Translations under genes and position numbers: made by a program
From: an uncultured Ruminiclostridium sp.
GTDB lineage: Bacteria > Bacillota > Clostridia > Oscillospirales > Ruminococcaceae
Assembly (NCBI GenBank): GCA_949878745.1
Contig: CATLBH010000017.1
Span: 1-54,626, forward strand
Length of the DNA: 54,626 nucleotides
Direction: 5' to 3'
Shown: in pieces, positions 21,235-53,126 of the stretch
Layout of the letters: every line of letters starts with the position of its first letter
Position numbering within the stretch: position 1 is the stretch's first letter
Notes under the pieces: generated by a model
Seen by the model: the letters and a program-made list of their open reading frames with translations, nothing else
The model's database searches: none
Told to the model about the DNA's origin: nothing

Positions 21235-21650
21235 AAAAATCCTCCAAAACTGAGCGGAAAACCGCCATATGTATTGCTCCCGTTATCAGCCGCGTTCCCG
21301 CGAAGAGGTATTTGTTCTTAAAATATTCGCAAATTCCGGCAGCGGTCTTGTTTATATCATACCAAAGCGCAAAAGGCTAAGGTATGAGCATAAAAAATGA
21401 TTTGGAAGCAGAGGCGTCGGTAAAAATCCTACTGACTGCCTATAATAGTAATTATAACGATTTAATTCCCAAAAGTCAATTGACTATGTGACGGATTTGT
21501 GATATCTTTTTGAAAAAAATTAGTGCGATTTCGACAATATATCCAATTTTATAAATAATAAATAATTTAATAGAATTTATTATTATGTTTAAATAGTTAC
21601 TATTATAGGAAGCTGGAAAAAAACTTCCGTTTTATAAAGGCGTATTACTA
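21235..21650. other. Intergenic region without a clear gene
   Basis: Roughly 415 mostly AT-rich bases. The only candidate is a 35-codon frame at 21384-21491 (MSIKNDLEAEASVKILLTAY...) with a poor ribosome site, possibly the start of a lost gene. A small inverted repeat, GGAAG...CTTCC, lies at 21608-21628. Confidence 0.35.
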
Positions 21651-21964
21651 AAGAACCGCTGATTAAGAAACTGTTCCAATAGGAATGGAGTGCGGATTTT
21701 CGAGCAAATTTTGTTGATGACAAGGCAAAAATCCGCGGGCGGGCAGCTTACGCGATAAGCCCGTCAAGGATTTTTAACACACGATGTGTTATACCAATCC
21801 CTTTTTAAACTGACGAAATACACACAGTTTAAAAAGGGATTGCACCCAAAGCACTAATCCAACAGTTTTAAAAGGGATTAGTATAAAACACAATCGCCCC
21901 GTTCAAAGCAGTGTACTTACGCGGCCGATTGTGTTACGCTGTGCTTTAATCAGCGGTTTCCTAA
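21651..21964. repeat. Nested palindromic repeats (three layers)
   Basis: The outer pair AAGAACCGCTGATTAA (21651-21666) and TTAATCAGCGGTTTC (21946-21960) encloses two other repeat types. First is a copy of the GAAACTGTTCCAATAGGAAT type (from 21667), with inner GCGGGCAGC...CCCGTCAAGGATTTTTAACAC. Second is a complete double-hairpin element at 21791-21884. The remaining right part forms AACACAATCG...CGATTGTGTT. The arrangement reads as successive insertions of small non-coding palindromic elements into one another. Confidence 0.7.
21791..21884 (+). repeat. Double-hairpin element, copy 1
   Basis: Hairpin I has a perfect 18-base stem, CAATCCCTTTTTAAACTG with its complement, around a 12-base loop. 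The core GCACCCAAAGCACTA follows, then hairpin II, CTAATCC...GGATTAG, ending GTAT. No ribosome site follows. This copy is inside the nested repeat block. Confidence 0.8.
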
Positions 21965-31298: not shown

Positions 31299-31352
31299 AT
31301 ACTATTTGCAAATAGTGCTTTGGGTGTGATTGTTGATCAATATAAAATCATT
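31299..31352 (-). repeat. Double-hairpin element, degenerate copy before iorA
   Basis: On the minus strand a TGAT...ATCA hairpin with an inner TTGATCAA leads into the core CACACCCAAAGCACTA, then the perfect palindrome ACTATTTGCAAATAGT and TAT. The iorA ribosome site GAAAGGAAAG follows within seven bases. The element overlaps the methyltransferase stop codon and fills the gap between the two genes. Confidence 0.6.
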
Positions 31353-32136
31353 CTTTTTGAAATATGTCAAGAATATGATGGCTTATACCCACCATATCCT
31401 CTCTTTCGCAAACGGAAAAGTGATATTTAAGATAGGTTTCAAACAGCTCTTCGTCCATATTGTCAACGCTGTTCCTCATATAATTGGTGAACATATCGGT
31501 TCCCACATAGTGAAGCCTTTTCACGGGGAAGCTTTTCATAAGCGCGTCTATATCCTCTTTTCGGTAAAGCTCGAAAAGCTCTTTAGGGCTTGAACCCGCC
31601 TTGAAGGTCACGGGATCCACCAGACTTTTGTAGGGTTCGTTTTTTATCATACCTTTTTCAAAACAGAACTGAACGATGGTAGCGTCGTTTCCGCAATAGG
31701 CGGCGAATATTATCCCGCCGCCCCTGGTGATTCGAATTGCCTCCGAAATGGCTTTTTCCTGTTCCTCTCGGGTAAAAAGATGGTACATCGGCCCCAGAAG
31801 AAGGGTTATATCATATGTACCGTCGGCTATATGAGACAAGTTTGTGGCGTTGCCTTTTGTTATGGTTATGTTTTCGTTTTCGGCGGTTTTTCTTTTAAAC
31901 GCTTCAATGTTATGGTCTATAAGCTCGACAGCGTCCACCCGATAGCCCTTTCGGGCAAAATAATGACTGTATCTTCCCGTTCCCGCGCCTATTTCGATAA
32001 TCCTGTCGTTTTCCTTAAGATATTTTTCCGTATATCGAACCGTGGTGAGAAATTCGGGGGTTCCGTGTTTTGAGGTCAGTCTTCCGTCCTCGTCGTAATT
32101 TTCGTAGTAGGCTTTTAAGTAGCTTTCGGTTTCCAT
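31348..32136 (-). CDS. SAM-dependent class I methyltransferase
   Basis: A 262-residue protein. Motif I is IIEIGAGTGRYSHYFARKGY (about 44-63), followed by the acidic residue in VDAVELI; a later strand is YDITLLLGPMYHL. These are the SAM-binding features of class I methyltransferases of the Methyltransf_11/25 type. The substrate is not inferable. The gene reads toward iorA with only the small element in between, so it may be the first gene of that transcript. GGGAGG lies just after a double-hairpin element and before the ATG. Confidence 0.88.
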   Translation of the reverse strand: METESYLKAYYENYDEDGRLTSKHGTPEFLTTVRYTEKYLKENDRIIEIGAGTGRYSHYFARKGYRVDAVELIDHNIEAFKRKTAENENITITKGNATNLSHIADGTYDITLLLGPMYHLFTREEQEKAISEAIRITRGGGIIFAAYCGNDATIVQFCFEKGMIKNEPYKSLVDPVTFKAGSSPKELFELYRKEDIDALMKSFPVKRLHYVGTDMFTNYMRNSVDNMDEELFETYLKYHFSVCEREDMVGISHHILDIFQKE

Positions 32137-32154
32137 AAACGGCCTCCCTGTTTT

Positions 32155-32262
32155 ATACTAATCTTTGGTCAGATTATAGACAAAAAAATGTTGACCAAAG
32201 ATTAGTGTTTCGGGTGTAATCTTTAATCATATTTCGTCTGCAATATGATTAAAGATTAGTAT
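32155..32262 (-). repeat. Double-hairpin element, copy 2 (methyltransferase leader)
   Basis: Both stems are different from copy 1 but remain paired. On the minus strand hairpin I is AATCTTTAATCATAT with its complement, the core is TACACCCGAAACACTA, and hairpin II is AATCTTTGGTCA...TGACCAAAGATT, ending AGTAT. The ribosome site GGGAGG and the ATG at 32136 follow at once in the same sense. Confidence 0.8.
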
Positions 32263-32264
32263 TA

Positions 32265-32570
32265 GAAACTGTTCCGATGGGAATAGGCGCACGTCTTTTC
32301 GGCATATTTTGCCGCTGACTTGCGTTTTGTCATTTGCTTTGTTGTCGGCGCATCCTTGCGCCGACTTTGGGTAAATGACTAATACTAATCCCGCTTTAAA
32401 CTGTGGGTATTACGTCAGTTTAAATCAGTTTAAAAAGGGATTGGTATAACACATCGTGAGTTAAAAATCCTTGACGGGCTTATCGCGTAAGCTGCCCGCC
32501 TGCGGATTTTTGCCTTGTTATCAACAAATTATGCTCTAAAATCCGCACACCATTCCTTTTGGAACAGTGC
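32265..32570. repeat. Palindromic repeat, GAAACTGTTCC type, composite
   Basis: Ends GAAACTGTTCCGATGGGAAT and ATTCCTTTTGGAACAGT are inverted copies. Inside are a CGGCATATTTTGCCG hairpin, a GTCGGCGCA...TGCGCCGAC hairpin, a single-hairpin relative of the double-hairpin element (32390-32453) and a GACGGGCTTATCGCG / GCGGATTTTT module shared with 21667-21790 and 42939-43178. No reading frame. It directly abuts copy 2 of the double-hairpin element. Confidence 0.75.
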
Positions 32571-32735
32571 CTTGTTATGATTAATTATACCATAAAAATA
32601 GCCTCTTGTGAATACTTTTTCATATTTTTTTACAGTAATGGAATAAAATTTTGTTTTTACTTTTTAAGGAATATCGGTTAAGGGTCGAATGAATCTCGAA
32701 AAAAAATTATCTTTGAATCTTTACCGAAATTTGTA

Positions 32736-32764
32736 TTGACATTTTGACCAAAAAATGCTAAAAT
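32736..32764 (+). promoter_or_regulatory. Promoter of the first chemoreceptor gene
   Basis: TTGACA at 32736-32741, a 17-base spacer and TAAAAT at 32759-32764. The transcript would contain the whole double-hairpin element at 32826-32918 in its leader before the start codon at 32942. Confidence 0.75.
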
Positions 32765-32825
32765 GATATCAATTGATTTACGCAATCTGTCCAATACTGT
32801 TAATAAAAATAGGCATAAACCGTTC

Positions 32826-32918
32826 ATACCAATCCCTTTTAAACTGACGAAATACCCACAGTTTAAAAAGGGATTGCACCCAAAGTACTAATCCAACAGT
32901 TTTAAAAGGGATTAGTAT
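32826..32918 (+). repeat. Double-hairpin element, copy 3 (chemoreceptor leader)
   Basis: Hairpin I is AATCCCTTTTAAACTG with its near-complement, the core is GCACCCAAAGTACTA and hairpin II is CTAATCC...GGATTAG, ending GTAT. It lies in the 5' leader of the chemoreceptor, about 60 bases after its -10 box and seven bases before the ribosome site AAGGAGG. Confidence 0.85.
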
Positions 32919-32941
32919 AAGTGCCCAAGGAGGTTGAAACC

Positions 32942-34864
32942 ATGAATTCAAGAATAGGAAGAAAGCTTTTGTTGTCCGTTATCCTTTGCTTGGCGATGAC
33001 GGTGGCGATAGTAAATACGGTCACTATTTTCCGCGCCACCGCCCACAGCGATTCCCTTATGCTTATGCAGGCGCGCTCCGGACTCAACATTATAATACAC
33101 CGTCTTGAGGAACATCTGAATCGGTTTGAGGATATTTACAACACGTTGGAACTTTCGGATACTATTTCACAGGATAATGTTTTTAACGCCAACGCCGCTT
33201 GGGGGAACGCGAAAGAAACCGATTTCGACTTCGCCGCCTTTTATAACGAAGAGGGAAAGGTGTACTGGCAGACCGGCAACTACAACCTGGCCGACATATC
33301 CCTGGATAAAATAGGCGGCGCGGGTTACAGCGGCTTTGTCAACGACTCCCGCGCGGGTCTTACCATACAGCTCACCAAGCCGATTAAGGTAAACGGTACC
33401 GTAAAGGGCGCGGTGGTAGTGGGAATGAAAATGGACAACAACAGCTGGATAGATCAGATAAAGCTTGAATTGGGCAACGAGGTAACCATTTTCAGCGGCA
33501 CCACGCGTTACGCCAGCACCATTCTCGACGAGAACGAAGAGAGACTTTTAGGCTCGGAAATGCCCGAATACGTAGCCGAAGCGCTTTTCAACGGAATCGG
33601 CGAATACGAGGGCACGGCGGAGATAAACGGGCAGAAGCACTATGTTTGTTACAGCGTGTTCAACGACATAAACGAGGAGCCGGTAGGCGCCTATCTTGCC
33701 GCCCTTTCCTCCGAGGAATCCGATAAGCTTAAGGGGGTCATGATACTTACTTCTATCATAGTGGCGGTAAGCGTCGCGGCGGTTTTCCTGTTCTTAATAA
33801 GCTTTATTTCCATTCGCCTTATACTGAGGCCCATTCAGGCGGCTGAGAAGCTGGCGGACTGTATGAGCCGAGGCGACCTTGACGAGCCCGATGTGGATTT
33901 CAAGTTCGGCAACGACGAATTGGGCGACTTCGTACATAAGCTGGAAAAAACCAAGCATAATCTTAACAACTATATAAAAGACATCAACTTCGTTCTGGGA
34001 AAGATGGCCGAAGGCGATTTTACGGCGCAGCCACGCATACACTATATAGGAAACTTTATCGCCATAAGCGATTCCTTTGCCAAGATAGAAGAGTCCCTTA
34101 ACGAGATTATTTCCCACATAGGCGAATCCTCAGGCGACGTTATGATAGGCGCGTCCCAGATAGCGGACGGCTCCAAGAGCCTGGCGGAGGGCACTACAAG
34201 GCAGGCCGCCGCGATCGAGGAGCTTTCGGCCACTATTAACGAGATAGCCGATAAGGTACAGAGGACGGCGGACAACGCTTCGGAGGCGAATAAGGTGTCC
34301 CAGTCGGGCATTGACAAGATAGAATATCAGAACGGCGAAGTTGAGCGTATGCTTCAGGCTATGGACGATATCAAAAAGAGATCCGACGAAATTCAGAACA
34401 TCATAAAGTCCATTGACGACATCGCTTTCCAGACCAACATACTTGCCCTTAACGCCGCGGTTGAAGCGGCAAGGGCGGGAGAAGCGGGAAAAGGCTTCGC
34501 GGTGGTCGCGGACGAGGTGGGAAGCCTTGCGGCAAAGAGCGCGGAAGCGGCGCAGCAGACGGGAGAGCTTATCGGAGCCACGATAGAGGCGGTGGGAAAA
34601 GGCATAACCATCGCGCAAACCACGGCTTCCACCATGAAAGAGGTCACCAAGCTTTCGGATAAGACCAATTCTTACATCGAAGATATATCCAACGCCTCGG
34701 GAGAACAGGCGGACGCAATCATTCAGGTAAAGATCGGCATCGAACAGATTTCCACTGTCGTTCAGCAAAATTCCGCCACCGCGGAGGAAACGGCGGCGGC
34801 CTGCTCCGTCCTCAGCGAACAGTCGTCCAAGCTGGAGAATGAGATCGGAAGACTTAAGGTGTAA
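32942..34864 (+). CDS. Methyl-accepting chemotaxis protein
   Basis: I start at ATG 32942 behind AAGGAGG; an upstream GTG at 32921 overlaps that site. The 640-residue protein has a first membrane span (about 8-30), an extracellular sensor domain (about 31-255) with a Cache-like fold, a second span (about 265-290), a HAMP domain, and the cytoplasmic signalling domain. The hairpin tip, [20 protein letters not shown], is near 490-510. It controls CheA in the chemotaxis array. The ligand is not known. A double-hairpin element in the leader and a downstream terminator frame a single-gene unit. Confidence 0.95.
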
Positions 34865-34916
34865 TATTTACAATAAGTGCTTTTGAAATCTTGCCTTTAA
34901 ATGAAAATTATTATTA

Positions 34917-34958
34917 AAAACCGTAATCTTGCTGTTTCGTTGCAAGATTACGGTTTTT
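34917..34958. terminator. Bidirectional terminator
   Basis: AAACCGTAATCTTGC pairs perfectly with GCAAGATTACGGTTT and is followed by a T run. It separates the chemoreceptor from the convergent surface-protein gene. A second hairpin, ATTATTCGG...CCGAATAAT, follows. Confidence 0.85.
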
Positions 34959-34994
34959 CGTATTATTCGGAACGCGCCGAATAATTATTATTTG

Positions 34995-37900
34995 TTATTT
35001 TTTCTTTTTGAAGATTATTATTCCCAACGCGGCCGCCGCGGCGGGAATAAGAGCAAGCGCGACGCCGGTATTCTGATTCTTATCCTCTTCGTTCGCGCTA
35101 AAAGAGTTGTTTCCTTCGGCGGCGGGAATATCGGAGGGTACGTTTTGGGAAGCGTTGGCTTCGGTTTCCGTATTTAAGTTGTTTTCCGTATTTACCGCAC
35201 TTTCGGGAGCCAAAGAAATTTCTTCGGCGGTGACGGAAGCTTCGTTAAGCTTTACGGTGGAAATAACATATTTGCTGAGATGTCCCGTTTTAAACGTTAC
35301 CGCGCCGTCGGAGAATACGGCTCCCATATCGGTATAGGTTCCGTCGGTTTCCGCGCGGTAAACGTAGTACGCGCCGCCCTTTAAGCTTTCGGGACATTTT
35401 ATTGTGATGGTAAGCGTACCGTAAGGCTGTATGGGCGCGTTGTTATAAACAAGAGTGATGTCGAATACCGCGTAGGTTTCGGTTGTTTCACCGACTATTA
35501 CGTTAAGCGCCGCGCCTTGTTTTACCGCATTTTCCGCAAATTCCACCTTAACGCCCGCCTTCTCGTCGGTAACCGATGTTGCGGCAGCGGGAGCGGAGGT
35601 AGTTTCTTCTGCGGAGGTCTGAGCGGTTTCGGGTACGGAGAATCCGTAATTTGCCGTGGTTACGGGAGGCTTTTCGGTAACAGCGGGCGGAAGCTTTTCA
35701 ACTGCTCTCGTTTCGGTTTTTCCGCAAATCTCGCATTTTCTGGTTTCTTCGCCTTCCTCTTTTTCGGTAGGCTCCTTTGTAATTTTCCATTCGCCGAAGG
35801 TATGCTCGGCTTCCTCGGATTTCTCGCCGCATTCGCATTCCTTCCAGTGGCTGTTATCGTCGGACATCCAATCGCCGAACTTATGGGCGTGATCGATTAC
35901 GGGGAGAGTTTCAACCTCCTTGAAAGCGCATACGGTACAAACTCTTTCCCGAGAGCCTTCTTCTTTTTCGGTAGGTTCCTTTGTGGTTTTCCATTCGCCG
36001 AAGGCATGTTTGGCTTCCTCGGATTTTTCGCCGCACTCGCATTCCTTCCAGTGGCTGTTATCGTCGGACTTCCAATCGCCGAACTTATGCGCGTGATCGA
36101 TTACGGGGAGTGTTTCAAGCTCTTTATAGCCGCACACGGTGCAAGCTCTTTCTCTAGAGCCTTCTTCTTTTTCGGTAGGCTCCTTTGTTGTTTTCCATTC
36201 GCCGAAGGCATGCTTGGCTTCCTCGGATTTTTCGCCGCACTTGCATTCCTTCCAGTGGCCCGTTTCGTCGTTTTTCCATTCCTCGCCGAATGTATGAGTG
36301 TGTTCCTCTTCCTCTCCGGCGCCTACGAGAGCATATTCGCTGAAATGCTCAAGGTAAATAATGTAGCTGTCCTCGGTTTGTTCGCCGGGGATAACTTCTT
36401 TTACCGTTTTTCCGTCCACTTGGGTCAGACGGAAGCAGGAAAACGTTTTGTCCCTGTGACCTGCGGGAATGGGAATAACTACCTGTACCAAGCCTTCATA
36501 GCCGTTTGAAAAATCTTCACCGTCATAAAGGAGAGTCAGGTCGAGAAGATTGTAATGGGTATTCCCCTTAATCTCTTCTCCCAAAGCTTCTTCGGCTCTT
36601 TTTAAGCCCTCTTCGTCATAAATTTCCTTCGCCTTTATTTTTATTTTTGTAAGATCAAGCTCGACGTTTTCGTCATGTTTGTTCTTCATATTAAAGGCGG
36701 GATTTATGGTGATAGTGGTAATTCTGTCCTCTTCCGGAATATCGGCCGCTTCGGGAGGAGTTTCCACTTCGGTTGTGGACTCGTTTTCTTTGTCAAAATA
36801 ACCGTCGCCATGTATCGTTATGTGACGCGGCTCCGACCATACGCCGATTTTATCGTTATTTTCATAAACGCAGGCGTCGATGATGTAATCCCCGTTTGAT
36901 AAATCGGGAAGGTCGTAAATGTGTTCTGACCAGCTTTTTGCCAATTTTACAAGCGAACCGTCTTTATCGTTGCGTATACGATACCAGAAATAGTATGTAT
37001 TATCATGTCTCAATCTGTCATAATCCCATAAAATTTCGTTAAATTTATAGAATAAGTTGGGAACCCATACCGTTTCGTCATGAACGGTATCAAGAGTCAA
37101 ATCATAGCTTTTGCTGTTATAATTGTAATTTTCATCGATTACAAACATTTCGGCTTTATAATTGCCGGCGGGAAGTCTGTTGGCGACATTAACGCCGTAA
37201 TTATAGTCTTTGGTTATCTCGTGCCATTCGTCCTCTAACAGCATATTGTTTTCCGCTGAGATACAGAGCCAATATTTGTAAGCGCCTTCGACATCCTCCC
37301 ACTTTATATGGCTTTCTTCAATCCGTATACTTTCGGGAATGTTTATGGTACCGTCAAGTATGGGATTGAAAGTCGCTTTAAGGGGTTCCAAACTAACGCT
37401 TGATGAAACGTTTTCCTGATCGCTGTACGCATATATGTATATTTGATATTCTTCGTTCGTGCGAGGGCAGGTAAGAGATTTCCAGTTTTCAAATACGGTA
37501 TCTTGGGCGTTGTCCCATTTATAATAAGTAAAGTTGCAGCCATCAAAATTTCCGTAAATTTGTACGCCATAATAAGCCGCGCCTTCTACTGCGTCCCATA
37601 AAATATTTTCTCCGCTTTCGTCAAAACGGACATTTTGGGGCGGTTCAAGATTTGTAGAAGCGGTATGAGGAATAAGAAGCGGTTCCGTCCATTTACTTGC
37701 GTTGTAATCTTTATCCATTGCCTGAACGGAAATCCAATAATTCCCCGTATCGGACAAATAATGTTTATATGTGATGGAGTTATATGATACATATGTATTA
37801 GTATATAATGACGACGCGTTTTCCTCATTATAAAAACGAATATTATATCGTGCGGTACCGGCCACTTCGTCCCATATAACCGTTTCATCATACTCCTCGT

Positions 37901-38447
37901 CTAATCTTACATTTTGCGGCATATCAAAAGAAGGTGAATAAGAAACGGTAACAGGTTCCGACCATTCGCTGTCAGTGCCTTCTTTGTCAAAGGCGCAGAG
38001 GGAAAATTCATATTCGCCGAAATCCATATTGTTTTCATAACACAGTCTGTCCAGCTCCGCATAGGTTTCATAGTACCTAAACCATTGTTCGTAGCCGTTT
38101 AATGTGGTTTTCAGACAATACCCGTATGCGGCTTTAACCTCGTCCCACTTGAAAAATCCGTTCGTTTCGTCATATCTGAAATTCGGCGGTGTGATTAACT
38201 CCTCCGTTTCGGCGGGCTCCGTATCGGAAACTGCGTCGGAGTTCGGGTATATGATATTTTCGTCTGTTTCCGATTCGGCGGGCAGTTCCGAAGGGGTTTC
38301 ATCGGCAACTCCGTCGGTCACCGATACATCGGGAATAAGCTCTTCCGCGTGGGCGGAATAAGGCGCAGTCAGTATGATTCCGCCGGCAAGCGACGACAAA
38401 AGCACCGCCGCCGCGCATATGGCGGATAACAGTTTTTTTGTTTTCAT
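34995..38447 (-). CDS. Large cell-surface protein with fibronectin-like and tandem repeats
   Basis: A 1150-residue exported protein. A signal peptide (residues 1-34, SAICAAAVLLSSLAGGIIL) is followed by six or so fibronectin-type-like repeats of about 85 residues (WDEVKAAYGYCLK, WDEVAGTARYNIRF, WDAVEGAAYYGVQI, WEDVEGAYKYWLCI) and a ZU5-like segment. Three tandem cysteine-pair repeats contain HAFGEWKTTKEPTEKEEGSR and CTVCGYKELETLP. After a Thr/Ser stretch and a second beta domain, the C-terminus is NQNTGVALALIPAAAAAL then KKKK, similar to a cell-wall sorting signal with a non-standard NQNTG motif. Probably an adhesin or carbohydrate-interacting surface protein. Confidence 0.82.
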   Translation of the reverse strand: MKTKKLLSAICAAAVLLSSLAGGIILTAPYSAHAEELIPDVSVTDGVADETPSELPAESETDENIIYPNSDAVSDTEPAETEELITPPNFRYDETNGFFKWDEVKAAYGYCLKTTLNGYEQWFRYYETYAELDRLCYENNMDFGEYEFSLCAFDKEGTDSEWSEPVTVSYSPSFDMPQNVRLDEEYDETVIWDEVAGTARYNIRFYNEENASSLYTNTYVSYNSITYKHYLSDTGNYWISVQAMDKDYNASKWTEPLLIPHTASTNLEPPQNVRFDESGENILWDAVEGAAYYGVQIYGNFDGCNFTYYKWDNAQDTVFENWKSLTCPRTNEEYQIYIYAYSDQENVSSSVSLEPLKATFNPILDGTINIPESIRIEESHIKWEDVEGAYKYWLCISAENNMLLEDEWHEITKDYNYGVNVANRLPAGNYKAEMFVIDENYNYNSKSYDLTLDTVHDETVWVPNLFYKFNEILWDYDRLRHDNTYYFWYRIRNDKDGSLVKLAKSWSEHIYDLPDLSNGDYIIDACVYENNDKIGVWSEPRHITIHGDGYFDKENESTTEVETPPEAADIPEEDRITTITINPAFNMKNKHDENVELDLTKIKIKAKEIYDEEGLKRAEEALGEEIKGNTHYNLLDLTLLYDGEDFSNGYEGLVQVVIPIPAGHRDKTFSCFRLTQVDGKTVKEVIPGEQTEDSYIIYLEHFSEYALVGAGEEEEHTHTFGEEWKNDETGHWKECKCGEKSEEAKHAFGEWKTTKEPTEKEEGSRERACTVCGYKELETLPVIDHAHKFGDWKSDDNSHWKECECGEKSEEAKHAFGEWKTTKEPTEKEEGSRERVCTVCAFKEVETLPVIDHAHKFGDWMSDDNSHWKECECGEKSEEAEHTFGEWKITKEPTEKEEGEETRKCEICGKTETRAVEKLPPAVTEKPPVTTANYGFSVPETAQTSAEETTSAPAAATSVTDEKAGVKVEFAENAVKQGAALNVIVGETTETYAVFDITLVYNNAPIQPYGTLTITIKCPESLKGGAYYVYRAETDGTYTDMGAVFSDGAVTFKTGHLSKYVISTVKLNEASVTAEEISLAPESAVNTENNLNTETEANASQNVPSDIPAAEGNNSFSANEEDKNQNTGVALALIPAAAAALGIIIFKKKK
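35700..36310 (-). repeat. Three tandem units of about 205 bases inside the surface protein
   Basis: Each unit encodes a 65- to 68-residue module with HWKECECGEKSEEAKHAFGE, the KEPTEKEEG linker and a C-x-x-C pair. The modules at the centre are nearly identical at the DNA level while the outer ones have drifted, as expected for slippage or recombination changing repeat number. Confidence 0.8.
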
Positions 38448-38811
38448 AGCATAAAATCCTTTCTTTTAAAATTTGTCAAGTAATTGTTTTAGGAAATTCT
38501 AATACAAATATTTTACCATAAAGCACCGAAAGATTCAATAGTATAAAGAAATTACGCTAAAAAATTCATAAAAAGTTTTTTGTAAAGTGATTTGTTGATT
38601 GAAGTAGGCTGAAATTAGGCTTTTGCGGCCATTCCGAATTTTGCTTTCATTTTGATGTATGTTAATATTTTTTTAATTTTTCTAAGAAAACTTAAAATGG
38701 TATTTTTAAGGGAACCTTTAAAACCTTGTTTTTTCTCACAAGGTTTTTTGAGGTTCCCTTAAGTTAGTATGTGTGTATGCCTATTTGCTCCCGCAATTAA
38801 CGCTTAAAAAG
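38448..38811. other. AT-rich gap with one large palindrome
   Basis: Between the surface-protein start and the PhnB-like gene end. 38704-38766 forms AAGGGAACCT...AGGTTCCCTT with inner AAAACCTTG...CAAGGTTTT, and its ends resemble those of the repeat at 19797-19964. No convincing gene. The PhnB-like transcript may end at this palindrome. Confidence 0.5.
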
Positions 38812-39237
38812 TCAGCCGGATTTTCTCGGATTGGGGCAGGTTATTATCCAGGTGAAGCCGTATTTGTCGGTGAGAAGACAGCCCATTCCGCCGTCGTCGG
38901 GCTCCGGGTGGGGCGACAGTTCGGAAATCACGTTTCCGCCTTTTTTCAGTATTTCGATACTTTTCAGGGCTTCTTCTTCCGTTTCCGTGTGGATCATCAG
39001 CTTTACCGCTCTTGTGGGGGGTTCCTCTTCAAAGGTGTCGCCGGCGGCTAAGCTTGTTTGTCCCAGCAGGAATTCCGTGTGCATTACCTTTCCGATTTGG
39101 CTTTTATTTTCGCAGTTGTTTTCGTCCCATCTTGAAAGGTAGAGTATTTTTCCGCCGAAAGCGCCGATGTAGGCGTTTACGGCTTCTTCGCAATTGCCGT
39201 TAAAGGACAGATATGTAATGATTTTACGTTCGCTCAT
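38812..39237 (-). CDS. PhnB-like VOC-family protein
   Basis: A 141-residue protein of the glyoxalase/vicinal oxygen chelate superfamily, PhnB type: YLSFNGNCEEAVNAYIGAFGGK at the N-terminus, GDTFEEEPPTRAVKLMIHTE in the middle, and PDDGGMGCLLTDKYGFTWII at the C-terminus. The fold is a beta-alpha-beta-beta-beta repeat; metal ligands are only partly conserved, so activity is uncertain. ATG follows GGAG. Confidence 0.85.
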   Translation of the reverse strand: MSERKIITYLSFNGNCEEAVNAYIGAFGGKILYLSRWDENNCENKSQIGKVMHTEFLLGQTSLAAGDTFEEEPPTRAVKLMIHTETEEEALKSIEILKKGGNVISELSPHPEPDDGGMGCLLTDKYGFTWIITCPNPRKSG

Positions 39238-39255
39238 GGTTTTTTCTCCGGTAAT

Positions 39256-40107
39256 TTAAATTCGGTTCAGGCAAATTATACCTATTCCGTTAAGATTTCG
39301 GGAAGATACGAATAATTTGTTTTCTTCGATATATGCGCTGCCGCTCAGGCTTAAGGCCGTTTTGATCTCTTTTCTTTTTTCAAGAGTATTCGTATCCCAC
39401 AGAGCGATTTCACCGCAGGGATAAGAAACGGTCGCCAACATATCCTCATATATTCCGGCGCAGTCAAACATTTTATTGTGCGCGTTTTTTTGCGATAACA
39501 TTACTTTAAATTCCGACGGGTCTATCTTGAACAGTTTTTTGTCCCGACAGGCGGCATACAGTGTTTTATCTTTTATATAAAGGCTTCTGACGTTATGCTT
39601 CCCTAAAATCAGGCTTTTTTTCGGCGACATATTTTTCCGATCCAACAACAGAAGCCGACCGTCTACCGTTCCGCACAGCAGATCGCCGCCGTATGTTATT
39701 AAGCTCCACATACCGGCTTCGGAAACGGTATATTCGGTTTTTTCGAAGGATCTTTTATCGACGGTTATAATCCTTCCGTTACGTATGGAACAATATATCT
39801 TTTTTTCGTCCAAGGTCATTCCGCAAATATCAGAGCTTAGGTTTTCGCCTATTTTGATTTTTACGATAATTTCGTAATCATTTGCGTTTAAAACGTATAA
39901 GGTGCAAAAATCGCTTATGTAAATCCGATTTTCATCGGAAGTCATTATCTTTGACATAGCTTCTTTTTCAAAAATCTCTTTTTTGTAAATAACGGTTTCG
40001 GAGGCTCTGTCAAATTTATAAAGCGTTTTTTTACACAGAAAATCAATATATTGGTTTTTTACGCAAAAGCCGAGAACCGCGCCGTCCGAATTTATGAGGT
40101 AATCCAA
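39256..40107 (-). CDS. Beta-propeller (WD40/YVTN-like) repeat protein
   Basis: A TTG at 40107 is seven bases after AAGGAGG and gives MDYLINSDGAVLGFC; another TTG two codons earlier is too close to that site. The 283-residue protein consists of repeated four-strand blades (KIMTSDENRIYISDF, DICGMTLDEKKIYCSIRN, VRSLYIKDKTLYAACRDKKL, DCAGIYEDMLATVSYPCGEIALWD). No signal peptide. Cytoplasmic propellers of this type usually bind proteins. It follows the glycosidase gene closely in the same direction, so it may share the transcript. Confidence 0.72.
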   Translation of the reverse strand: MDYLINSDGAVLGFCVKNQYIDFLCKKTLYKFDRASETVIYKKEIFEKEAMSKIMTSDENRIYISDFCTLYVLNANDYEIIVKIKIGENLSSDICGMTLDEKKIYCSIRNGRIITVDKRSFEKTEYTVSEAGMWSLITYGGDLLCGTVDGRLLLLDRKNMSPKKSLILGKHNVRSLYIKDKTLYAACRDKKLFKIDPSEFKVMLSQKNAHNKMFDCAGIYEDMLATVSYPCGEIALWDTNTLEKRKEIKTALSLSGSAYIEENKLFVSSRNLNGIGIICLNRI

Positions 40108-40138
40108 ACGCAAGCCTCCTTATTAAACGCAAGCCGCC

Positions 40139-41398
40139 TTATTCGAAATAAAAGGCTTTTGCGCCGTGTTTTTTGAGTTTTACGGTGATGGTTTGGTCAA
40201 AATTCACTTTTTCGCCGCTCCAAAGCTCTTCGCCTTTTACGGGGGAGTAAATCTCAAGGTCGGAAAGGGGAATTTCTATCTCGCTGTCGCTGTCGCCCGC
40301 GTTGAATACCGCCGCGTAAAGTCCGCCCTCCGCGCTTGAGGCCGTCCAGAGAATGTGTTCGACGCCGTTTATTTCTTTGCGCCATACCTGATGGGAGTGG
40401 CGGGCGTTTTTGTGCATTTTCAGTATAGCCTCGTTGGTAAGGAGCTTTGTTGTGAAGTCGTCAAGCTTGGTAAGCTCGCAGCCTATCATAAGGGGGGAAC
40501 GGAAAATGCACCAGAGGGTGAGCATGGTGTACTGTTCGTTTTCGGTAAACTTCGTGCGGTTGTCGGGGCCGTAATCCTGAAGTATCGCGCCCACGGGGAG
40601 CATATCTGCGTCGGGGTAGGTTCCGAAGCCGGTGTGGGTGCACCATTTTTCGGTTCTGTCAAACATATCGTACAGAAGCTCCCATTTGTCCCAGAAATCG
40701 TCGGTTATGCGCCACATATTGGCGGTCTGTTTGAACAGCTCGGCTTTGTTCAAGGGGGCGGGGCCGGGGGAAAGGCTCAGAACCATATCTCTTCCGCAGC
40801 CTTTAAGGGCGTCGCTTAGCATTACCAGTTCTTTTTCCTCATGGGGCATTTCTCTGGCTATGTCGTCGCACTTTATAAAGTCCACGCCCCAGGAGGCGTA
40901 AAGCTTGAAAATGCTTTCGTAATATTCCTTCGCGCCTTCTTTGTCGGGGTTCACGCCGTACATATCGCTGTTCCACTCGCAGATGCTGGCGGTTTTGGCG
41001 ATTTGGCGGGCGGTTTTGTCAGTGCCTAAAATGGGGAGATTTTGGTGGACGGCTTGTCTGGAAATGCCGCGCATAATGTGAATACCGAATTTCAGACCCA
41101 GGGAATGAACATATTCGGCCAAGGGGGCGAAGCCTTTTCCGCCCTTTGAAGAGGGGAAGCGGTTTTCGGCGGGGATAAGGCGGGAGTATTCGTCGGTGCA
41201 TACCTCGGTAAAGGGGTGGTATTCGTGGCTTTCGGCGGTGGGCTCATACCACTGTATGTCCACAACCACGTATTCGTAGCCATATTTCTTAAGGTGCTTC
41301 GCCATATATTCGGCGTTCTTTCTCACGGTTTCCTCGTTTACGGAGGCTCCGTAGCAGTCCCAGCTGTTCCAGCCCATGGGTGCGGTTTTCATTTTCAT
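40139..41398 (-). CDS. Glycoside hydrolase family 27 alpha-galactosidase-like enzyme
   Basis: The start is ATG 41398 (MKMKTAPMGWNSWDCYG) behind GAAAGGA; a longer frame to 41524 has none. The 419-residue enzyme has the GH27 opening MGWNSWDC, YVVVDIQWY at strand 2 (residues 43-51), the nucleophile in FIKCDD (D178 or D179) and the acid/base in WRITDDFWDKW (about D233). A C-terminal beta domain follows. There is no signal peptide, so it acts on imported sugars. GH27 includes alpha-galactosidase and alpha-N-acetylgalactosaminidase; the substrate is inferred. Confidence 0.88.
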   Translation of the reverse strand: MKMKTAPMGWNSWDCYGASVNEETVRKNAEYMAKHLKKYGYEYVVVDIQWYEPTAESHEYHPFTEVCTDEYSRLIPAENRFPSSKGGKGFAPLAEYVHSLGLKFGIHIMRGISRQAVHQNLPILGTDKTARQIAKTASICEWNSDMYGVNPDKEGAKEYYESIFKLYASWGVDFIKCDDIAREMPHEEKELVMLSDALKGCGRDMVLSLSPGPAPLNKAELFKQTANMWRITDDFWDKWELLYDMFDRTEKWCTHTGFGTYPDADMLPVGAILQDYGPDNRTKFTENEQYTMLTLWCIFRSPLMIGCELTKLDDFTTKLLTNEAILKMHKNARHSHQVWRKEINGVEHILWTASSAEGGLYAAVFNAGDSDSEIEIPLSDLEIYSPVKGEELWSGEKVNFDQTITVKLKKHGAKAFYFE

Positions 41399-41557
41399 AT
41401 TGGTTTTTCCTTTCTTCGTGATTTGTGTTTTTTTAATCACTTTAAAAAATATTTTATTTATACCAAAGAGTAAAACGGCAGCGTCCTTATGGGAAAAACA
41501 GGGGGTGGAGCGCTTGCGCCGCATTTTTTGTTATAATTATCAGGATTATAGTTTTTG

Positions 41558-41586
41558 TTTACAATTTTATCCGCTTATGTTATAAT
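41558..41586 (+). promoter_or_regulatory. Promoter of the 183-aa protein gene
   Basis: TTTACA at 41558-41563, a 17-base spacer and TATAAT at 41581-41586, 42 bases before the ATG at 41629 with AAAGGAGGG in between. Confidence 0.7.
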
Positions 41587-41628
41587 TAAACCAATCAGAC
41601 AAAACCGATTTGTCAAAGGAGGGAAACG

Positions 41629-42180
41629 ATGTTATATCACGCTTCGCCGGTACCGGACATTATCAGGCTTGTTCCTCACATATCAAACCACGGAAGGCCG
41701 CTTGTATATTTTTCCTCAAGACCCGAAAACACGCTTGTGTATCTCAGCAACGCGGTGGAAAAGTGTTGTCGGGAAAAGGGGTTTGTTCACAAGGGAGGAT
41801 ATACGAAATGGGGACCTTACGGCTTTAGCGGGGAGGGAACGCTTACTCTGGACGAATATTATCCCGACGCGATAACGGATACTTATAAGGGCGTTTCGGG
41901 GTATATTTACGCCGCGGAGGAGTCGGAGGACATTGTGCCGCTAGAGGGGATCCCCTTTGCTTTCATCTCCGAAAGGGAGGTGGAGGTAAAGGGGCGGGAG
42001 TTTGTTCCCGACGCTTATTCGGCGCTTATGAGGGCGGCGGAAGAGGGAAAGATCGTTATCACGGAATATAAGGATCTTTCTCCCGCCAAGCTGGAATGGA
42101 TAGCAAAGACCGTAAAAAGGGAGTATGAAGAAGGATCGGAGGAATATCGGTTCTTTCTGAGGAACAAGTTCGCGCTGTGA
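41629..42180 (+). CDS. Uncharacterised protein, possibly ADP-ribosyltransferase-like
   Basis: A 183-residue soluble protein starting LYHASPVPDIIRLVPHISNH, then LVYFSSRPENTLVYLSNAVE and GVSGYIYAAEES. The opening L-Y-H-A-S and V-Y-F-S resemble the His-containing first strand and the second core strand of small ADP-ribosyltransferase-like domains of unknown function, but no acidic catalytic residue can be fixed and the similarity is weak. A clear promoter and ribosome site show a single-gene unit. Function open. Confidence 0.6.
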   Translation: MLYHASPVPDIIRLVPHISNHGRPLVYFSSRPENTLVYLSNAVEKCCREKGFVHKGGYTKWGPYGFSGEGTLTLDEYYPDAITDTYKGVSGYIYAAEESEDIVPLEGIPFAFISEREVEVKGREFVPDAYSALMRAAEEGKIVITEYKDLSPAKLEWIAKTVKREYEEGSEEYRFFLRNKFAL

Positions 42181-42229
42181 GAACAGTTTCCTATAAGTTT
42201 CGAATCGCGCGGGGGCAAATCCGATAAAT

Positions 42230-42901
42230 TTAATTCATATATTCGCCGTTGTATTCCAGAAGGGTCACTCCCGTTACGCCGCTCACCGTTTTGAATCGGG
42301 AAGCTTCGGAGGTGTCGTTGTTTTTAACCTTTATCTCCACGGTGAGCTCCGTTTCGCCGTCGGTAAGGGTCTTGCTCTTAAGCTTATATTTCATGGAGCT
42401 TAAAAGCGTGTTTATCTGATTTTCGGCGGAGTCATCGTATCTTACTATCAGGAGATAATTTTTCTTTTCCTTTTTGCAGAAGTGCAGTATTATGTAGATA
42501 AGGGCTATAACCACCGTTCCCACCATGGCCACGAAATAGAGACCCGCGCCGCAGGTTAAACCCGACGCAATGCCCCAAAACAAAAAGCCGATATCAAGCG
42601 GATCTTTTATGGCGGAGCGGAAACGCACGATGGAAAGCGCGCCCACCATACCGAGAGAAAGCACCAAGTTGGCGCTTATGGTCATTATGATGAAGGAGGT
42701 TATGACGGATATCATAATCAGAAGTATGTTGAAATTATCGCTGTAAACCACGCCGCGGTAGAAAAAGCGGTACACAAGATAAATCAGGACGCCGCAGAGG
42801 GCGGCGGAAAACATACAAATAAGTATGTGGGGCAGCGAAAGGCTGGCCAGCTGATCCGACAGATCCAGGCTCGCGCCGAGATCTTCAAGTATTTTATCCA
42901 T
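42230..42901 (-). CDS. DUF4956 membrane protein
   Basis: A 223-residue protein with four membrane spans (about residues 25-48, 55-76, 88-110 and 115-138) and a cytoplasmic C-terminal domain. MVGALSIVRFRSAIKDPLDIGFLFW is the strongly conserved signature of DUF4956. Such proteins are commonly encoded next to VTC-domain polyphosphate polymerases, as here. AAAGGAAAAAC precedes the ATG. Confidence 0.88.
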   Translation of the reverse strand: MDKILEDLGASLDLSDQLASLSLPHILICMFSAALCGVLIYLVYRFFYRGVVYSDNFNILLIMISVITSFIIMTISANLVLSLGMVGALSIVRFRSAIKDPLDIGFLFWGIASGLTCGAGLYFVAMVGTVVIALIYIILHFCKKEKKNYLLIVRYDDSAENQINTLLSSMKYKLKSKTLTDGETELTVEIKVKNNDTSEASRFKTVSGVTGVTLLEYNGEYMN

Positions 42902-42938
42902 TTGTTTGTTTTTCCTTTCAGGTTACGGAGACTGTTTT

Positions 42939-43178
42939 GAAACTGTTTCAATAGGAATCGGGGCGCGTCTTTTCGGCATATTTTGCCGCTGACTTGCGTT
43001 TTGTCATTTGCCCAAAGTCGGCGCATCCTTGCGCCGACAACAAAGCAAATTACTAACACATCGTGTGTTAAAAATCCTTGACGGGCTTATCGCGTAAGCT
43101 GCCCGCCTGCGGATTTTTGCCTTGTCATCAACAAAATATGCTCGAAAATCCGCACACCATTCTTATTGGAACAGTTTC
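42939..43178. repeat. Palindromic repeat, GAAACTGTTTC type, complete copy
   Basis: A 240-base element with inverted ends GAAACTGTTTCAATAGGAAT and ATTCTTATTGGAACAGTTTC. Inside are CGGCATATTTTGCCG, GTCGGCGCA...TGCGCCGAC and the GACGGGCTTATCGCG module. It lies between the VTC gene and the DUF4956 gene without disrupting either. Confidence 0.8.
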
Positions 43179-43193
43179 TTATTAAACAGACAC

Positions 43194-43898
43194 TTATTTT
43201 GCAAGTTTTTTTCTGAAATCCCTGCACAGTACGTATTTTGAGACCGATTCGGCGTTTAGGGGAAGACCCGCCAAAAGCTCGCGTATGTAGGAAGGCATAA
43301 AGCTGTCGTATTTCACCTCTAAAATTATTTCGCCCTTGTCAAAGACGTCGTAAAAGTTCGGCTTTCCGTTCAGGGCATCCATTCCCGCCATAGTTTTAAG
43401 ACGGCTGTCAAAGGTGATTCGTACGTTTCCCGCGGGGCAGACATAGGCTTCCCTCACATAGTCCACCACGGCGGCGGGGGATATCCTCACCAGCTTATCG
43501 GAGGCGTATAGTTCCTCGCCCACGGTACCCAGAAACCTTTCCTCGGACAAAAAGCCTTTGTCTCCCCGAAGAATGCTTTCGTAATCGCCGCAGGTCATTT
43601 TCACGGAACGCTTTGACACCATTTCGCCCTTTTTGTCCTTGATCTCCAGGCGGATAAGTTTCGGGGAAAGACCGTAAAATCTGATGCGGTATTTTTTTCT
43701 TACGTCAAGACCCATCAGCTTATCGTTATAGGCGCTGTCGAAAACGTCGTCGAGATAAAGGCTTGTGATTCTGTAGACTCCGTTGTCTCCGTGGGCATCG
43801 GGTTTCATCACGGCTTTGGCTCTTTGGCGGATTATTTCATACCAGCCTTTGTTAAGCATATACTTGAACTCGTGACGGTACTTTTTTCGGTTATCCAA
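43194..43898 (-). CDS. VTC-domain polyphosphate polymerase family protein
   Basis: A 234-residue protein starting at TTG 43898 behind AAAAGGAGG. YRHEFKYMLNKG at residues 7-18, YRITSLYLDD at about 43, KYRIRFYG near 65 and LEIKDKKGEMVSKRSVKM in the centre carry the alternating basic and acidic residues lining the tunnel of VTC-type polymerases. The family makes inorganic polyphosphate from ATP in eukaryotes; in bacteria the role is inferred. It pairs with the DUF4956 gene downstream. A single-hairpin element ends exactly where its ribosome site begins. Confidence 0.88.
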   Translation of the reverse strand: MDNRKKYRHEFKYMLNKGWYEIIRQRAKAVMKPDAHGDNGVYRITSLYLDDVFDSAYNDKLMGLDVRKKYRIRFYGLSPKLIRLEIKDKKGEMVSKRSVKMTCGDYESILRGDKGFLSEERFLGTVGEELYASDKLVRISPAAVVDYVREAYVCPAGNVRITFDSRLKTMAGMDALNGKPNFYDVFDKGEIILEVKYDSFMPSYIRELLAGLPLNAESVSKYVLCRDFRKKLAK

Positions 43899-43915
43899 GC
43901 AACCGCCTCCTTTTC

Positions 43916-43971
43916 ATACCGATATTTGGCCATACATATTATTTGTCCGTACTTTGACCGAAGATCGGTAT
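43916..43971 (-). repeat. Single-hairpin relative of the double-hairpin element
   Basis: On the minus strand ATACCGATCTTCGGTCA leads through TACGGACAAATAATATGT to GGCCAAATATCGGTAT. Stem and loop correspond to one hairpin of copy 2 (ATACTAATCTTTGGTCA with loop ATAGACAAAAAA). The ends show paired changes: CTAATC/GATTAG there, CCGAT/ATCGG here. The element abuts AAAAGGAGG of the VTC gene in the same sense. Confidence 0.65.
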
Positions 43972-44058
43972 CGGATACTCTTGATACAGTATAACATAGA
44001 GCGCGAATTTTTGCAATAGTTTTACGTCAGTTTTTAAAAAGTTGTTTAAAACGACATA

Positions 44059-44087
44059 TTGACTTTGTTTCCGATAAATGATATAAT
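44059..44087 (+). promoter_or_regulatory. Promoter of the second chemoreceptor gene
   Basis: TTGACT at 44059-44064, a 17-base spacer and TATAAT at 44082-44087. The spacer contains CCGATAAA, reminiscent of a flagellar sigma-28 -10 element, but no properly spaced TAAA is present, so I call it a housekeeping promoter. Confidence 0.7.
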
Positions 44088-44162
44088 GGCTTTGTAATTT
44101 TTTCCTTAATTTCATCATCTGAATCTTTATAATTTATTTAATCAAGGAGGAAATCAGTCGAT

Positions 44163-46139
44163 ATGAAAACTATTAAGGGTAAAATACTTCTCCGAGTGCT
44201 GTTACTGGTGTTTTCGGTGGCGTTTGTGGTGGCTCTTATAAGCGCTTTTATGAACGCTTCGAGTATTGACTCGCTTCTTGCGAAAACAATACCTCCTTCC
44301 ACACGTATTGCCGCTAACGCGGTTAAGTGGAAGATGGATAATTACTGGGCGCCTCTCAAGGAAGCCGCCGAATACGATATATTCCGAGACGAGGATCCCG
44401 AATCAGCCGCAATAAATGAAATGGCTTTAATTATGGCTGAAAGAAACGGATTTATTTACATAGGCAAGATGGATGCGGATGGCAAAGCTTCCACAGGTCA
44501 GAATTACGGCAGCGAGTCTTATTTCACGCAATGCCGCGATACTATGAAGCCGTATGTTACCGATCTTATGTTTGACGGTGAGCGGAACGTGTTTATACTT
44601 GAAGTTCCCATTATTACCGACGGTGGATTTGACGGGATCGTTTACGGCGCGGTCAACGCGGATTTTCTCGTGGATATAGTAAGCGATCTTCTTGTGGGTG
44701 ACAAAGGCGTGTCTTATATAATAGACAGGAACGGAAACGTTATAGGTCACCCGGATCGCTCTTTTATAGAACAGCACGCCAACATTATCGAGACCGCCAA
44801 GGAGGACAAGGGCGTTCAGAGCGTGGCGGACGTAAATCTTCGCATGATGAAAGGCGAAACGGGCTTTGACACGTATAATTATTACGGGGATAAGAAGCTG
44901 GTGGGCTATGCTCCCATAAGCGAGGAATTGGGCTGGAGCATCGCCATAGAGATGAGCGAAAACGAGTTTAAGTCCTCGATAGGCGTCAGCACGGCGCTTA
45001 TTTACGGGGCGGCGCTTATAGTTATAGTAATCGCGTTTATAGCGGCTCTTCGTCTGGCGCGGACCATCTCGGAGCCGATAAAGGCCTGTTCGGAGCGGCT
45101 GACGCTGCTGTCTCAGGGGGATCTTCAGGCGGCGGTGCCCGAGGTTACCACCAAGGACGAGATAGCCGCGCTTGTTACGGCGCTGGGCACCACGGTATCG
45201 CGGCTTTCGGACGTGGTGGGGGACGTGTCGGGGCATCTGGGGCATATGGCCAACGGAGATTTTACGGTTGAAATGACCCGCCGGTACAAGGGGGACTTTG
45301 TGGCGATAGAGACCTCGATGAAATCCATACAGAGATCGCTCAGAGACACTCTTATCGGTATTTCCCAATCCTCCGACCAGGTGGCGGTAAGCGCGGATCA
45401 GGTGGCGGCAAGCTCCACCGCGCTGAGTCAGGGAGCCACGGAGCAGGCGAGCTCCGTTGAAGAGCTGGCGGCGACTATCACGGACATTTCGGGACATATA
45501 CGCAATAACGCCGAAACCACCCGCAAGGCCAACGAAAACGCCCATATGGCGGGCGAAGATATGGACGAAAGCAGCCATAAGATGCAGGAGCTTATCGAGG
45601 CCATTCAGGAGATCAATATGACCTCGGACAAGATAAGCGACATTATACAGACCATCGAGGACATCGCGTTCCAGACAAACATTCTCGCCCTTAACGCGGC
45701 GGTTGAGGCGGCCAGGGCGGGGGACGCGGGCAAGGGCTTCGCGGTGGTGGCTTCGGAGGTAAGAAGTCTCGCCTCGAAATCCGCGGCCGCTTCCAAGAAC
45801 ACGGCGGCGCTTATAAACGAATCCCAGCTGGCGGTTCAGAAGGGAATGACTTTGGTGAACGAGACGGCGGAGGCGCTGATGCGCACCGTGGAAAGCGTGG
45901 AGAACATCGTTACCATGCTGGACGAGATTTCCAACGCCACGGAGCAGCAGTCGGAGGCTATAGAGCAGGTAACGCTGGGCGTGGATCAGATTTCCACCGT
46001 GGTTCAGACCACCTCGGCCACTTCGGAGGAGAACGCGGCCACCGCGGAAGAACTTTCCGGACAGTCGCAGGTTATGAATAATATGATTGCCAAGTTCAAG
46101 CTGGAGCAAAAGGAAGCGGAAGAGCCGGCGGCTGAATAA
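44163..46139 (+). CDS. Methyl-accepting chemotaxis protein with dCache sensor
   Basis: A 658-residue chemoreceptor. A first span (about 9-31) precedes an extracellular double-Cache domain (about 35-275: [50 protein letters not shown]), a second span (about 280-300), HAMP (about 302-355), and a signalling domain with the tip [20 protein letters not shown] near 498-518. dCache sensors usually bind small metabolites. AAGGAGG is 12 bases before the ATG. It is a different paralogue from the receptor at 32942. Confidence 0.95.
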
Positions 46140-46263
46140 AAAAAGTAAAAAAGTGATATACGAACGCTTTCGGAGGCGGGAGACGGTTTTAAACGGATTT
46201 CGCGGAAGATGGGCGTTCGTTTTTTTCGGAAATTTTTATTCAATTTTCAATGAGCGTTTTTTT

Positions 46264-46379
46264 ATACTGATTTTTAATCAATCTGTTGACAAACAGATTG
46301 ACTAAAAATCACCCCCAAAGCACTATATGCAAATCATTCCAAATTTTATTTTGTCTATAGTATGATTTGAAAACAGTAT
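46264..46379 (+). repeat. Double-hairpin element, copy 4
   Basis: Hairpin I, TGATTTTTAATCAATCTGTT with AACAGATTGACTAAAAATCA, is paired over 20 bases with one mismatch. The core is CCCCCAAAGCACTA. Hairpin II is CAAATCAT...ATGATTTG, ending CAGTAT. The stems differ from all other copies. AAGGAGGG follows 23 bases later. Confidence 0.75.
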
Positions 46380-46499
46380 TAATTCGATAAAAACAGACAA
46401 AAAAGGAGGGCGGCGTGTTGTATTTTCCGCTTTTCTTTCGAAAAACGAAAGGAAAGCCGGTGAGTACGAAGGACGGGAGGCGAAGCAGAAAATGCACTA

Positions 46500-46614
46500 A
46501 TACTAATCTTTAATCATAATGCAGACGAAGTCGGAAATACGATTGAAGATTACACCCGAAACACTAATCTTTGGTCAACATTTTTTTGTCTATAATCTGA
46601 CCAAAGATTAGTAT
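46500..46614 (+). repeat. Double-hairpin element, copy 5
   Basis: The same stems as copy 2 in the opposite orientation in the window: AATCTTTAATCATAA...GATTGAAGATT, core TACACCCGAAACACTA, then AATCTTTGGTCA...TGACCAAAGATT and AGTAT. AGGGGGG follows within 15 bases. Confidence 0.8.
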
Positions 46615-46906
46615 TAGGAATCAGGGGGGACCGATTTTTTTGAAGATTGACATTTGTATTTTCCTTTCTTTTTATTCTCTTGTGAGTTGATTTATATTAT
46701 ACTTGATTGGGAACGAAAAGTCAAGCTTTTGGAGGTACAAAAATTTTGAAATTTTCGGATTCGTTTTTGTATAATTTAACGATACATTATCTTGGGAAAA
46801 ATGTCGGTTTATTTTACGCCGCTTGTGTTACACGGTATCGAGTCCGCTTTTTTACCCTTATTTTACTTGTTTTACCCGTATTTTAACCGTTTTTTTAAAA
46901 AAACTA

Positions 46907-53032: not shown

Positions 53033-53126
53033 ATACCAATCCCTTTTTTAACTGACGAAATACACACAGTTTAAAAAGGGATTGCACCCAAAGCACTAAT
53101 CCAACAGTTTTAAAAGGGCTTAGTAT
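53033..53126 (+). repeat. Double-hairpin element, copy 6
   Basis: Almost identical to copy 1: CAATCCC...GGGATTG hairpin, core GCACCCAAAGCACTA and CTAATCC...GGCTTAG, ending GTAT. One arm base differs (GGGCTTAGTAT). No gene follows on this strand. Confidence 0.8.

What the first reader, a model, noticed from the sequence alone, without database searches (positions are those of the whole stretch)
31299..46614. Double-hairpin element family with covarying stems and a conserved CACCCAAAGCACTA core
Seen directly: six full copies (21791, 32155, 32826, 46264, 46500, 53033) and one degenerate copy (31299) share the layout hairpin I, core Y-R-C-C-C-R-A-A-R-N-A-C-T-A, hairpin II, AGTAT. Stems differ between copies (CAATCCCTTTTTAAACTG; CTAATCTTTGGTCA; TGATTTTTAATCAATCTGTT) yet stay paired, while the core barely changes. 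That is the pattern of selection on structure (covariation). I do not recognise it as a described RNA or repeat family.
Basis: partly seen in the sequence, partly recalled or inferred. Interest (0 to 1): 0.75.

Follow-up and report, generated by a model that had tools for sequence, protein, structure and literature searches.

The report
Double-hairpin miniature transposon family
The repeated double hairpins are copies of a tiny, gene-less jumping DNA element that has spread between the genes of this bacterium and some relatives; the enzyme that moves it was not found.

Summary
Six full copies and one decayed copy lie in the window, and the genome holds 180 core matches against 2 for the reversed control. 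Stems differ wholesale between subfamilies yet stay paired. The elements are 78-124 bp, start TAC, end GTA and are flanked by a duplicated TNA triplet: 68 of 87 copies, shuffled mean 36. Ten of 102 have a strict empty-site match elsewhere, nine with one intact triplet. One copy sits inside another. So this is a miniature inverted-repeat transposable element (MITE) family, not a demonstrated RNA. Within subfamilies, changed stem pairs are mostly unpaired, so single copies show little sign of structural selection. B- and D-type ends share a signature, TACTAAT-n14-TAGACAAA, with other short structured elements; it hits 16 of 295 relatives, at least four probably by chance. No gene-bearing element with these ends was found in what I searched, so the mobilising enzyme is unknown. 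It has no Rfam match, and my paper searches found no description. Known kind, unusual build.

The parts
21792..21883 (+). full copy, subfamily A (92 bp); flanking triplets TTA and TAA differ
31300..31350 (-). decayed copy: core, short hairpin II and right end kept, left end not recognisable; just upstream of a gene start
32156..32261 (-). full copy, subfamily B (106 bp); TAA on both sides
32827..32917 (+). full copy, subfamily A (91 bp); triplets TCA and TAA differ; just upstream of the start of a chemotaxis receptor gene (32942-34864)
46265..46378 (+). full copy, subfamily D (114 bp); TTA on both sides
46501..46613 (+). full copy, subfamily B (113 bp); triplets TAA and TTA differ
53034..53125 (+). 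full copy, subfamily A (92 bp); TGA on both sides
46553..46566 (+). conserved core between the hairpins, example from the B copy

Best explanation
It is a MITE family that spreads by insertion into TNA targets, mostly between genes. Shown: discrete units with ends TAC...GTA, a 3-bp TNA duplication, empty sites, a nested copy, high copy number and patchy presence among species. Inferred: a transposase acting in trans recognises the ends (TAC at the tip; in B- and D-type ends also a TAGACAAA box at positions 22-29), cuts TNA with a 3-bp stagger and joins the element there. Positions 4 to about 20 of each end pair with an internal inverted copy beside the core, which makes the two hairpins. New subfamilies arise when the middle of an end changes together with its internal copy, which gives the covariation. 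Why the core stays fixed is unknown; my best guess is a protein contact or spacer needed for movement. The enzyme was not identified.
For: 180 core matches against 2 control in the genome. Equal flanking triplets in 68 of 87 copies with ends chosen by sequence alone, shuffled mean 36.4, maximum 50. Strict empty sites for 10 of 102 elements with equal triplets; by my reading 9 of the 10 keep the triplet exactly, and two of them use the same target repeat. An A copy inside hairpin I of a B copy with the triplet doubled. 0 of 66 copies mostly inside ORFs of 150 aa or more, which cover 77% of the same DNA. G+C of copies 30%. Patchy presence: core with hairpins in 8 of 393 relatives searched, all of one genus. 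Shared end signature with other short elements.
Against: No autonomous partner: the genes hit by five Pfam families lack these ends, and no gene-bearing unit turned up in 843 kb of this genome. 19 of 87 copies have unequal triplets, among them three of the six full window copies. The TAGACAAA box is within one mismatch at position 21-22 of at least one end in only 6 of 19 representatives; A and C types lack it. The ORF test overstates the bias, because an insertion breaks the ORF it enters.
Confidence: 0.85

Rival explanations
1. A structured RNA or cis-regulatory family: each copy works where it sits (terminator, leader or protein-binding RNA), and selection keeps two hairpins and the core.
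For: Pairing is kept between subfamilies; folds are far more stable than shuffles; in subfamily A loop I varies more overall than the arms, and the core has the fewest private changes (2 in 49 copies); some copies sit just upstream of genes.
Against: Target duplications and empty sites; changed pairs within subfamilies are mostly one-sided; private changes per site in arms (0.007-0.013) are like those in loops (0.010-0.012) in A, and B core is not lower than its arms; both strands are used; no Rfam match.
Confidence: 0.06
2. A REPIN-like element moved by a Y1 (RAYT) transposase acting on single-stranded hairpins.
For: Two palindromic units in one mobile element, compensatory changes and extragenic location as in REPINs (passages of PMC3116915); enzyme encoded elsewhere.
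Confidence: 0.05
3. MITEs of an IS1031/IS5-type insertion sequence.
For: IS1031 members prefer TNA and make a 3-bp repeat (passage of PMC12016507); IS5-type transposase genes exist in this genome.
Against: The ends of the IS seen in two places here are AGAACCTGTACCAATAGG, unrelated to TACTAAT; G161, G043 and G062 have no PF01609 match though they carry the end signature.
Confidence: 0.08
4. Moved by the tyrosine recombinase beside the copy at 53034.
For: It is adjacent and weakly matches the XerA / integron integrase model, far below its cut-off.
Against: Relatives at E 1e-10 or better in only 3 of 16 genomes (G000, G043, G018), none in G001, G016, G036, G055 or G070, which carry copies.
Confidence: 0.01

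Closest known systems
Prokaryotic MITEs in general (review PMC10969869, passages read)
   Same: Short, AT-rich, terminal inverted repeats, direct repeats, intergenic, fold into stem-loops.
   Different: Here each end is self-paired, so there are two hairpins around a core; the centre is steadier than most of the end sequence; no parent insertion sequence found.
REPINs / REP doublets with RAYT (PMC3116915, passages; PMC3733652, passages)
   Same: Doublet of palindromic units, compensatory changes, extragenic, many copies, families with different stems.
   Different: TNA target duplication; tips TAC...GTA; Y1 genes do not follow the distribution.
IS1031 subgroup of IS5 (ISLrh, PMC12016507, passage)
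   Same: TNA target and 3-bp repeat.
   Different: Its terminal repeat GAACCTGTCTAGTATCT is unrelated; in this genome such ends resemble the window's other repeat family.

Membership tests
MITE | short unit without a gene | tested here: met
   78-124 bp
MITE | terminal inverted repeats | tested here: met
   TACYAATC...GATTAGTA in A and B types; other types share TAC...GTA and partly similar next bases
MITE | target site duplication | tested here: met
   68 of 87 equal triplets; 10 strict empty sites of 102
MITE | many dispersed copies between genes | tested here: met
   180 matches; 0 of 66 inside long ORFs
MITE | shares ends with an autonomous transposon | tested here: inconclusive
   none found in what was searched
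REPIN / RAYT | Y1 transposase in genomes that carry the element | tested here: not met
   absent from G001, G016, G055, G043, G062, G161; some of these are incomplete
REPIN / RAYT | tetranucleotide tag (GTAG type) at the foot of each unit | not tested
   feature from PMC3733652; no dedicated test was run
IS1031/IS5-derived | TNA target, 3-bp duplication | tested here: met
IS1031/IS5-derived | IS1031-like terminal repeats | tested here: not met
Rfam RNA families | score above a curated cut-off | tested here: not met
   0 matches in the window; best sub-threshold E 0.34

The most novel reading that the evidence does not exclude
The mobilising enzyme reads the folded ends (two hairpins plus the core) and not a fixed terminal sequence, so stems are free to turn over while fold, core and tips are kept: a structure-read transposon that still makes a 3-bp target duplication, moved by an enzyme not yet linked to any insertion sequence.
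Probability: 0.12. Interest if true: 0.75.

Novelty: new variant of a known kind. Interest (0 to 1): 0.42.

Why it matters
It is a clean case where the covariation used to call RNA families comes from a mobile DNA element whose source copies change, and not visibly from selection on each copy; a covariance scan without a target-duplication check would call it a new RNA. It also sets a concrete hunt: an enzyme that has spread some hundred or more copies in several genomes with related ends, without a gene-bearing copy in the sequence examined.

Tried and rejected
RNA family: no Rfam match at the gathering score; a permissive look at 46240-46640 gave four weak matches, best E 0.34. No covariance model was built and no tree-based null was run; permutation between clusters was used.

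Elsewhere: the core pattern has 0 stretches in viral contigs and the B copy no match in plasmids. The one hit outside Clostridia (L066) has no hairpins. The core hits in G002, G030, G093, G136, G138, G180, G194, G219, G234 and G363 have stem scores of 2 or less.

Partner: PF01609, PF13586, PF13359, PF01797, PF00665. The loci of these genes lack the ends, with two near misses: in L089 the string TAA-TACTAAT lies about 350 bp upstream of an IS5-type gene but outside that IS's own terminal repeat and without the box; in L229 of G072 a different IS has inserted into a MITE. In G072 the wide-spaced end pairs that I fetched were separate MITEs; only the first 100 of 111 places were listed.

Loop-loop complementarity was seen by eye in some subfamilies and not tested. 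Solo hairpins (9, of which 7 with equal triplets) are most simply deletions between repeated arms; independent movement is not excluded.

Limits of the counts: one search dropped 32 of 119 cores that lacked both recognisable ends or flanks. In some searches ends were chosen with a bonus for equal triplets, so 102 of 122 and 18 of 24 are not independent evidence. One search used 49 A copies of 92 bp and 20 B copies with one arm spacing out of 113 distinct elements; zero change at the ends follows from how ends were found.
Full report
What is there. The core is present at all seven reported places. The exact units are 21792-21883, 32827-32917, 46265-46378, 46501-46613 and 53034-53125 on the plus strand and 32156-32261 on the minus strand. 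The seventh, about 31300-31350 on the minus strand, keeps its right end and a short hairpin II but no clear left end. Five of the six full copies were folded as single-stranded DNA and are much more stable than shuffles, z -5.5 to -10.0; in the 53034 copy hairpin II is not in the best fold.

How common. In the genome (2.67 Mb, 108 contigs) CACCCRAARCACTAATC with up to 2 mismatches occurs at 90 forward and 90 reverse places, reversed control 0 and 2. The exact 14-base core occurs in 18 of 393 relatives searched. In the loci fetched (up to three per genome) hairpins stand beside it only in eight genomes of the same genus (G000, G001, G008, G016, G036, G049, G055, G070); in the other ten the stem scores are 2 or less.

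It is an insertion. With ends chosen by sequence alone, 87 of 119 cores have both ends and flanks. The three bases outside each end are identical in 68 of 87 (shuffled mean 36.4, maximum 50 of 1000 shuffles), and 67 of 77 pairs of form TNA share the middle base. Joining flanks with one triplet removed and searching the held DNA gives strict empty-site matches for 10 of 102 elements with equal triplets. By my reading 9 of the 10 keep the triplet exactly; element 52 does not, and elements 12 and 28 use the same target repeat. Several of these empty sites are other copies of repeats into which the element has jumped. One is an A unit inside hairpin I of a B unit. A likely between-species case (element 82) is visible but did not pass the strict filter. 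Copies avoid long ORFs: 0 of 66 lie mostly inside ORFs of at least 150 aa, which cover 77% of the same DNA; an insertion breaks the ORF it enters, so this overstates the bias. Three of the six full window copies have unequal triplets, as expected of older copies or of errors in placing ends.

Covariation, and what it means. Among 113 distinct elements, 19 clusters of the outer arm were represented by one element each. Own-arm pairing is 13.2 of 15 in hairpin I and 10.4 of 12 in hairpin II, against 8.4 and 7.1 with arms of other clusters; no permutation of 20,000 reaches either total. About seven of the 19 are variants of subfamily A. With 8 coarser clusters and fixed register the totals are 89 against a best permuted 87, and 84 against 84, reached once in 20,000. 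Several positions show three or four pair types, for example C-G, T-A, G-C and A-T at position 9. Within a subfamily the picture differs. In 49 A copies, changed pairs are one-sided or unpaired 89 times (16 of them G-T) and complementary 22 times. In 20 B copies the numbers are 9 and 0 for each hairpin. Private changes per copy and site in A are 0.007-0.013 in the arms, 0.010-0.012 in the loops and 0.004 in the core (2 changes). In B the core (0.009) is like the arms. Overall differences in A are highest in loop I (0.195). So pairing marks the source of each subfamily, and single copies give little sign of structural selection, though the low count in the A core leaves some room.

The ends and the wider group. 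In B and D types the ends read TACTAAT or similar, then 14 bases, then TAGACAAA at positions 22-29, with the box in the hairpin loop. It is within one mismatch at position 21-22 of at least one end in 6 of 19 representatives; A and C types lack it. The signature TACTAATN{13,15}TAGACAAA hits 16 of 295 relatives: 84 places here, 68 in G001, 47 in G072 (another genus), 34 in G055, 12 in G161, and fewer elsewhere. The reversed pattern gives at most one place per genome. In four genomes (G102, G138, G168, G347) the single hit has no TNA flank and is probably chance. The loci fetched hold other short structured elements: hairpins of 100 and 157 bp, units of 164 and 183-189 bp with several hairpins, and another double hairpin with core CACCCTAAGCACTA. 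The double hairpin thus looks like one build among several with the same tips and box; a common enzyme is an inference.

Missing partner. Five Pfam families were searched, each in one to nine genomes. None of the genes found is bounded by these ends. G161, 99% complete with several identical ends, has no PF01609, PF13359 or PF01797 match and one sub-cut-off PF00665 match in a 663-aa frame. In 843 kb of this genome plus fetched loci of relatives, the only 0.5-6 kb pairing of matching ends and equal triplets is between unlike MITE ends. In G072, with 111 ends by a relaxed pattern, the wide-spaced pairs fetched are separate MITEs. The enzyme may be lost, unassembled, of another family, or encoded by a gene without such ends.

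Mechanism. Shown: insertion with a 3-bp TNA duplication, fixed tips, and two self-paired ends around a core. Inferred: a transposase in trans with a 3-bp stagger. IS1031-type elements share the TNA habit (passage of PMC12016507), but the one examined in this genome has other ends. REPINs are the closest analogue in logic (passages of PMC3116915), but Y1 genes do not follow the distribution.

Literature. Searches for the core letters found no paper, and topic searches listed no description of this family; the library holds open-licence papers only, and long result lists were seen in part. Passages were read in PMC12016507, PMC3116915, PMC10969869 and PMC3733652; the others were seen in listings.

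Verdict. A real, abundant and, as far as these searches go, undescribed MITE family with self-paired ends and a conserved centre. It is a known kind with an unusual build; the open question is the enzyme.

Noticed in passing
window 21660-21790, 32267-32385, 32460-32590; L089, L090: A second repeat family (AGAAACTGTTCCAATAGGAA...) whose ends resemble the terminal repeat AGAACCTGTACCAATAGG of an IS5-type insertion sequence in the same genome; probably MITEs of that IS.
   Followed up: partly
L140:2237-2425, L142:9609-9796, L201, L203, L213, L215: Elements of 183-189 bp with the same TNA / TAC...GTA ends that fold into about six hairpins, -61 to -101 kcal/mol as RNA.
   Followed up: partly
L158:10318, L166:16585, L168:11348, L174:13658, L176:8526, L183:15053, L185:2669, L188:10208, L191:15704: Solo hairpins of about 50 bp with the same ends, 7 of 9 with equal triplets; probably deletions between repeated arms.
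   Followed up: partly
window 21650-21672 and 21938-21960; L188:16483-16739: A third repeat, GGAACCGCTGATTAA...TTAATCAGCGGTTCC, which in L188 has inserted into hairpin II of an A copy, apparently with TTAG doubled.
   Followed up: no
L365 and L366 (G072): MITEs with the same ends that carry a short tandem repeat (GGTCACTGYGTGGACAA) inside.
   Followed up: no
window 53209-54132 (-): Tyrosine recombinase gene beside the 53034 copy; its distribution does not follow the element.
   Followed up: yes
loops of hairpins I and II, e.g. L152, L150, L182: The two loops are complementary over 6-8 bases in some subfamilies (TAGACAA with TTGTCTA), as expected if both ends carry the same box; a loop-loop contact was not tested (by eye).
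   Followed up: no
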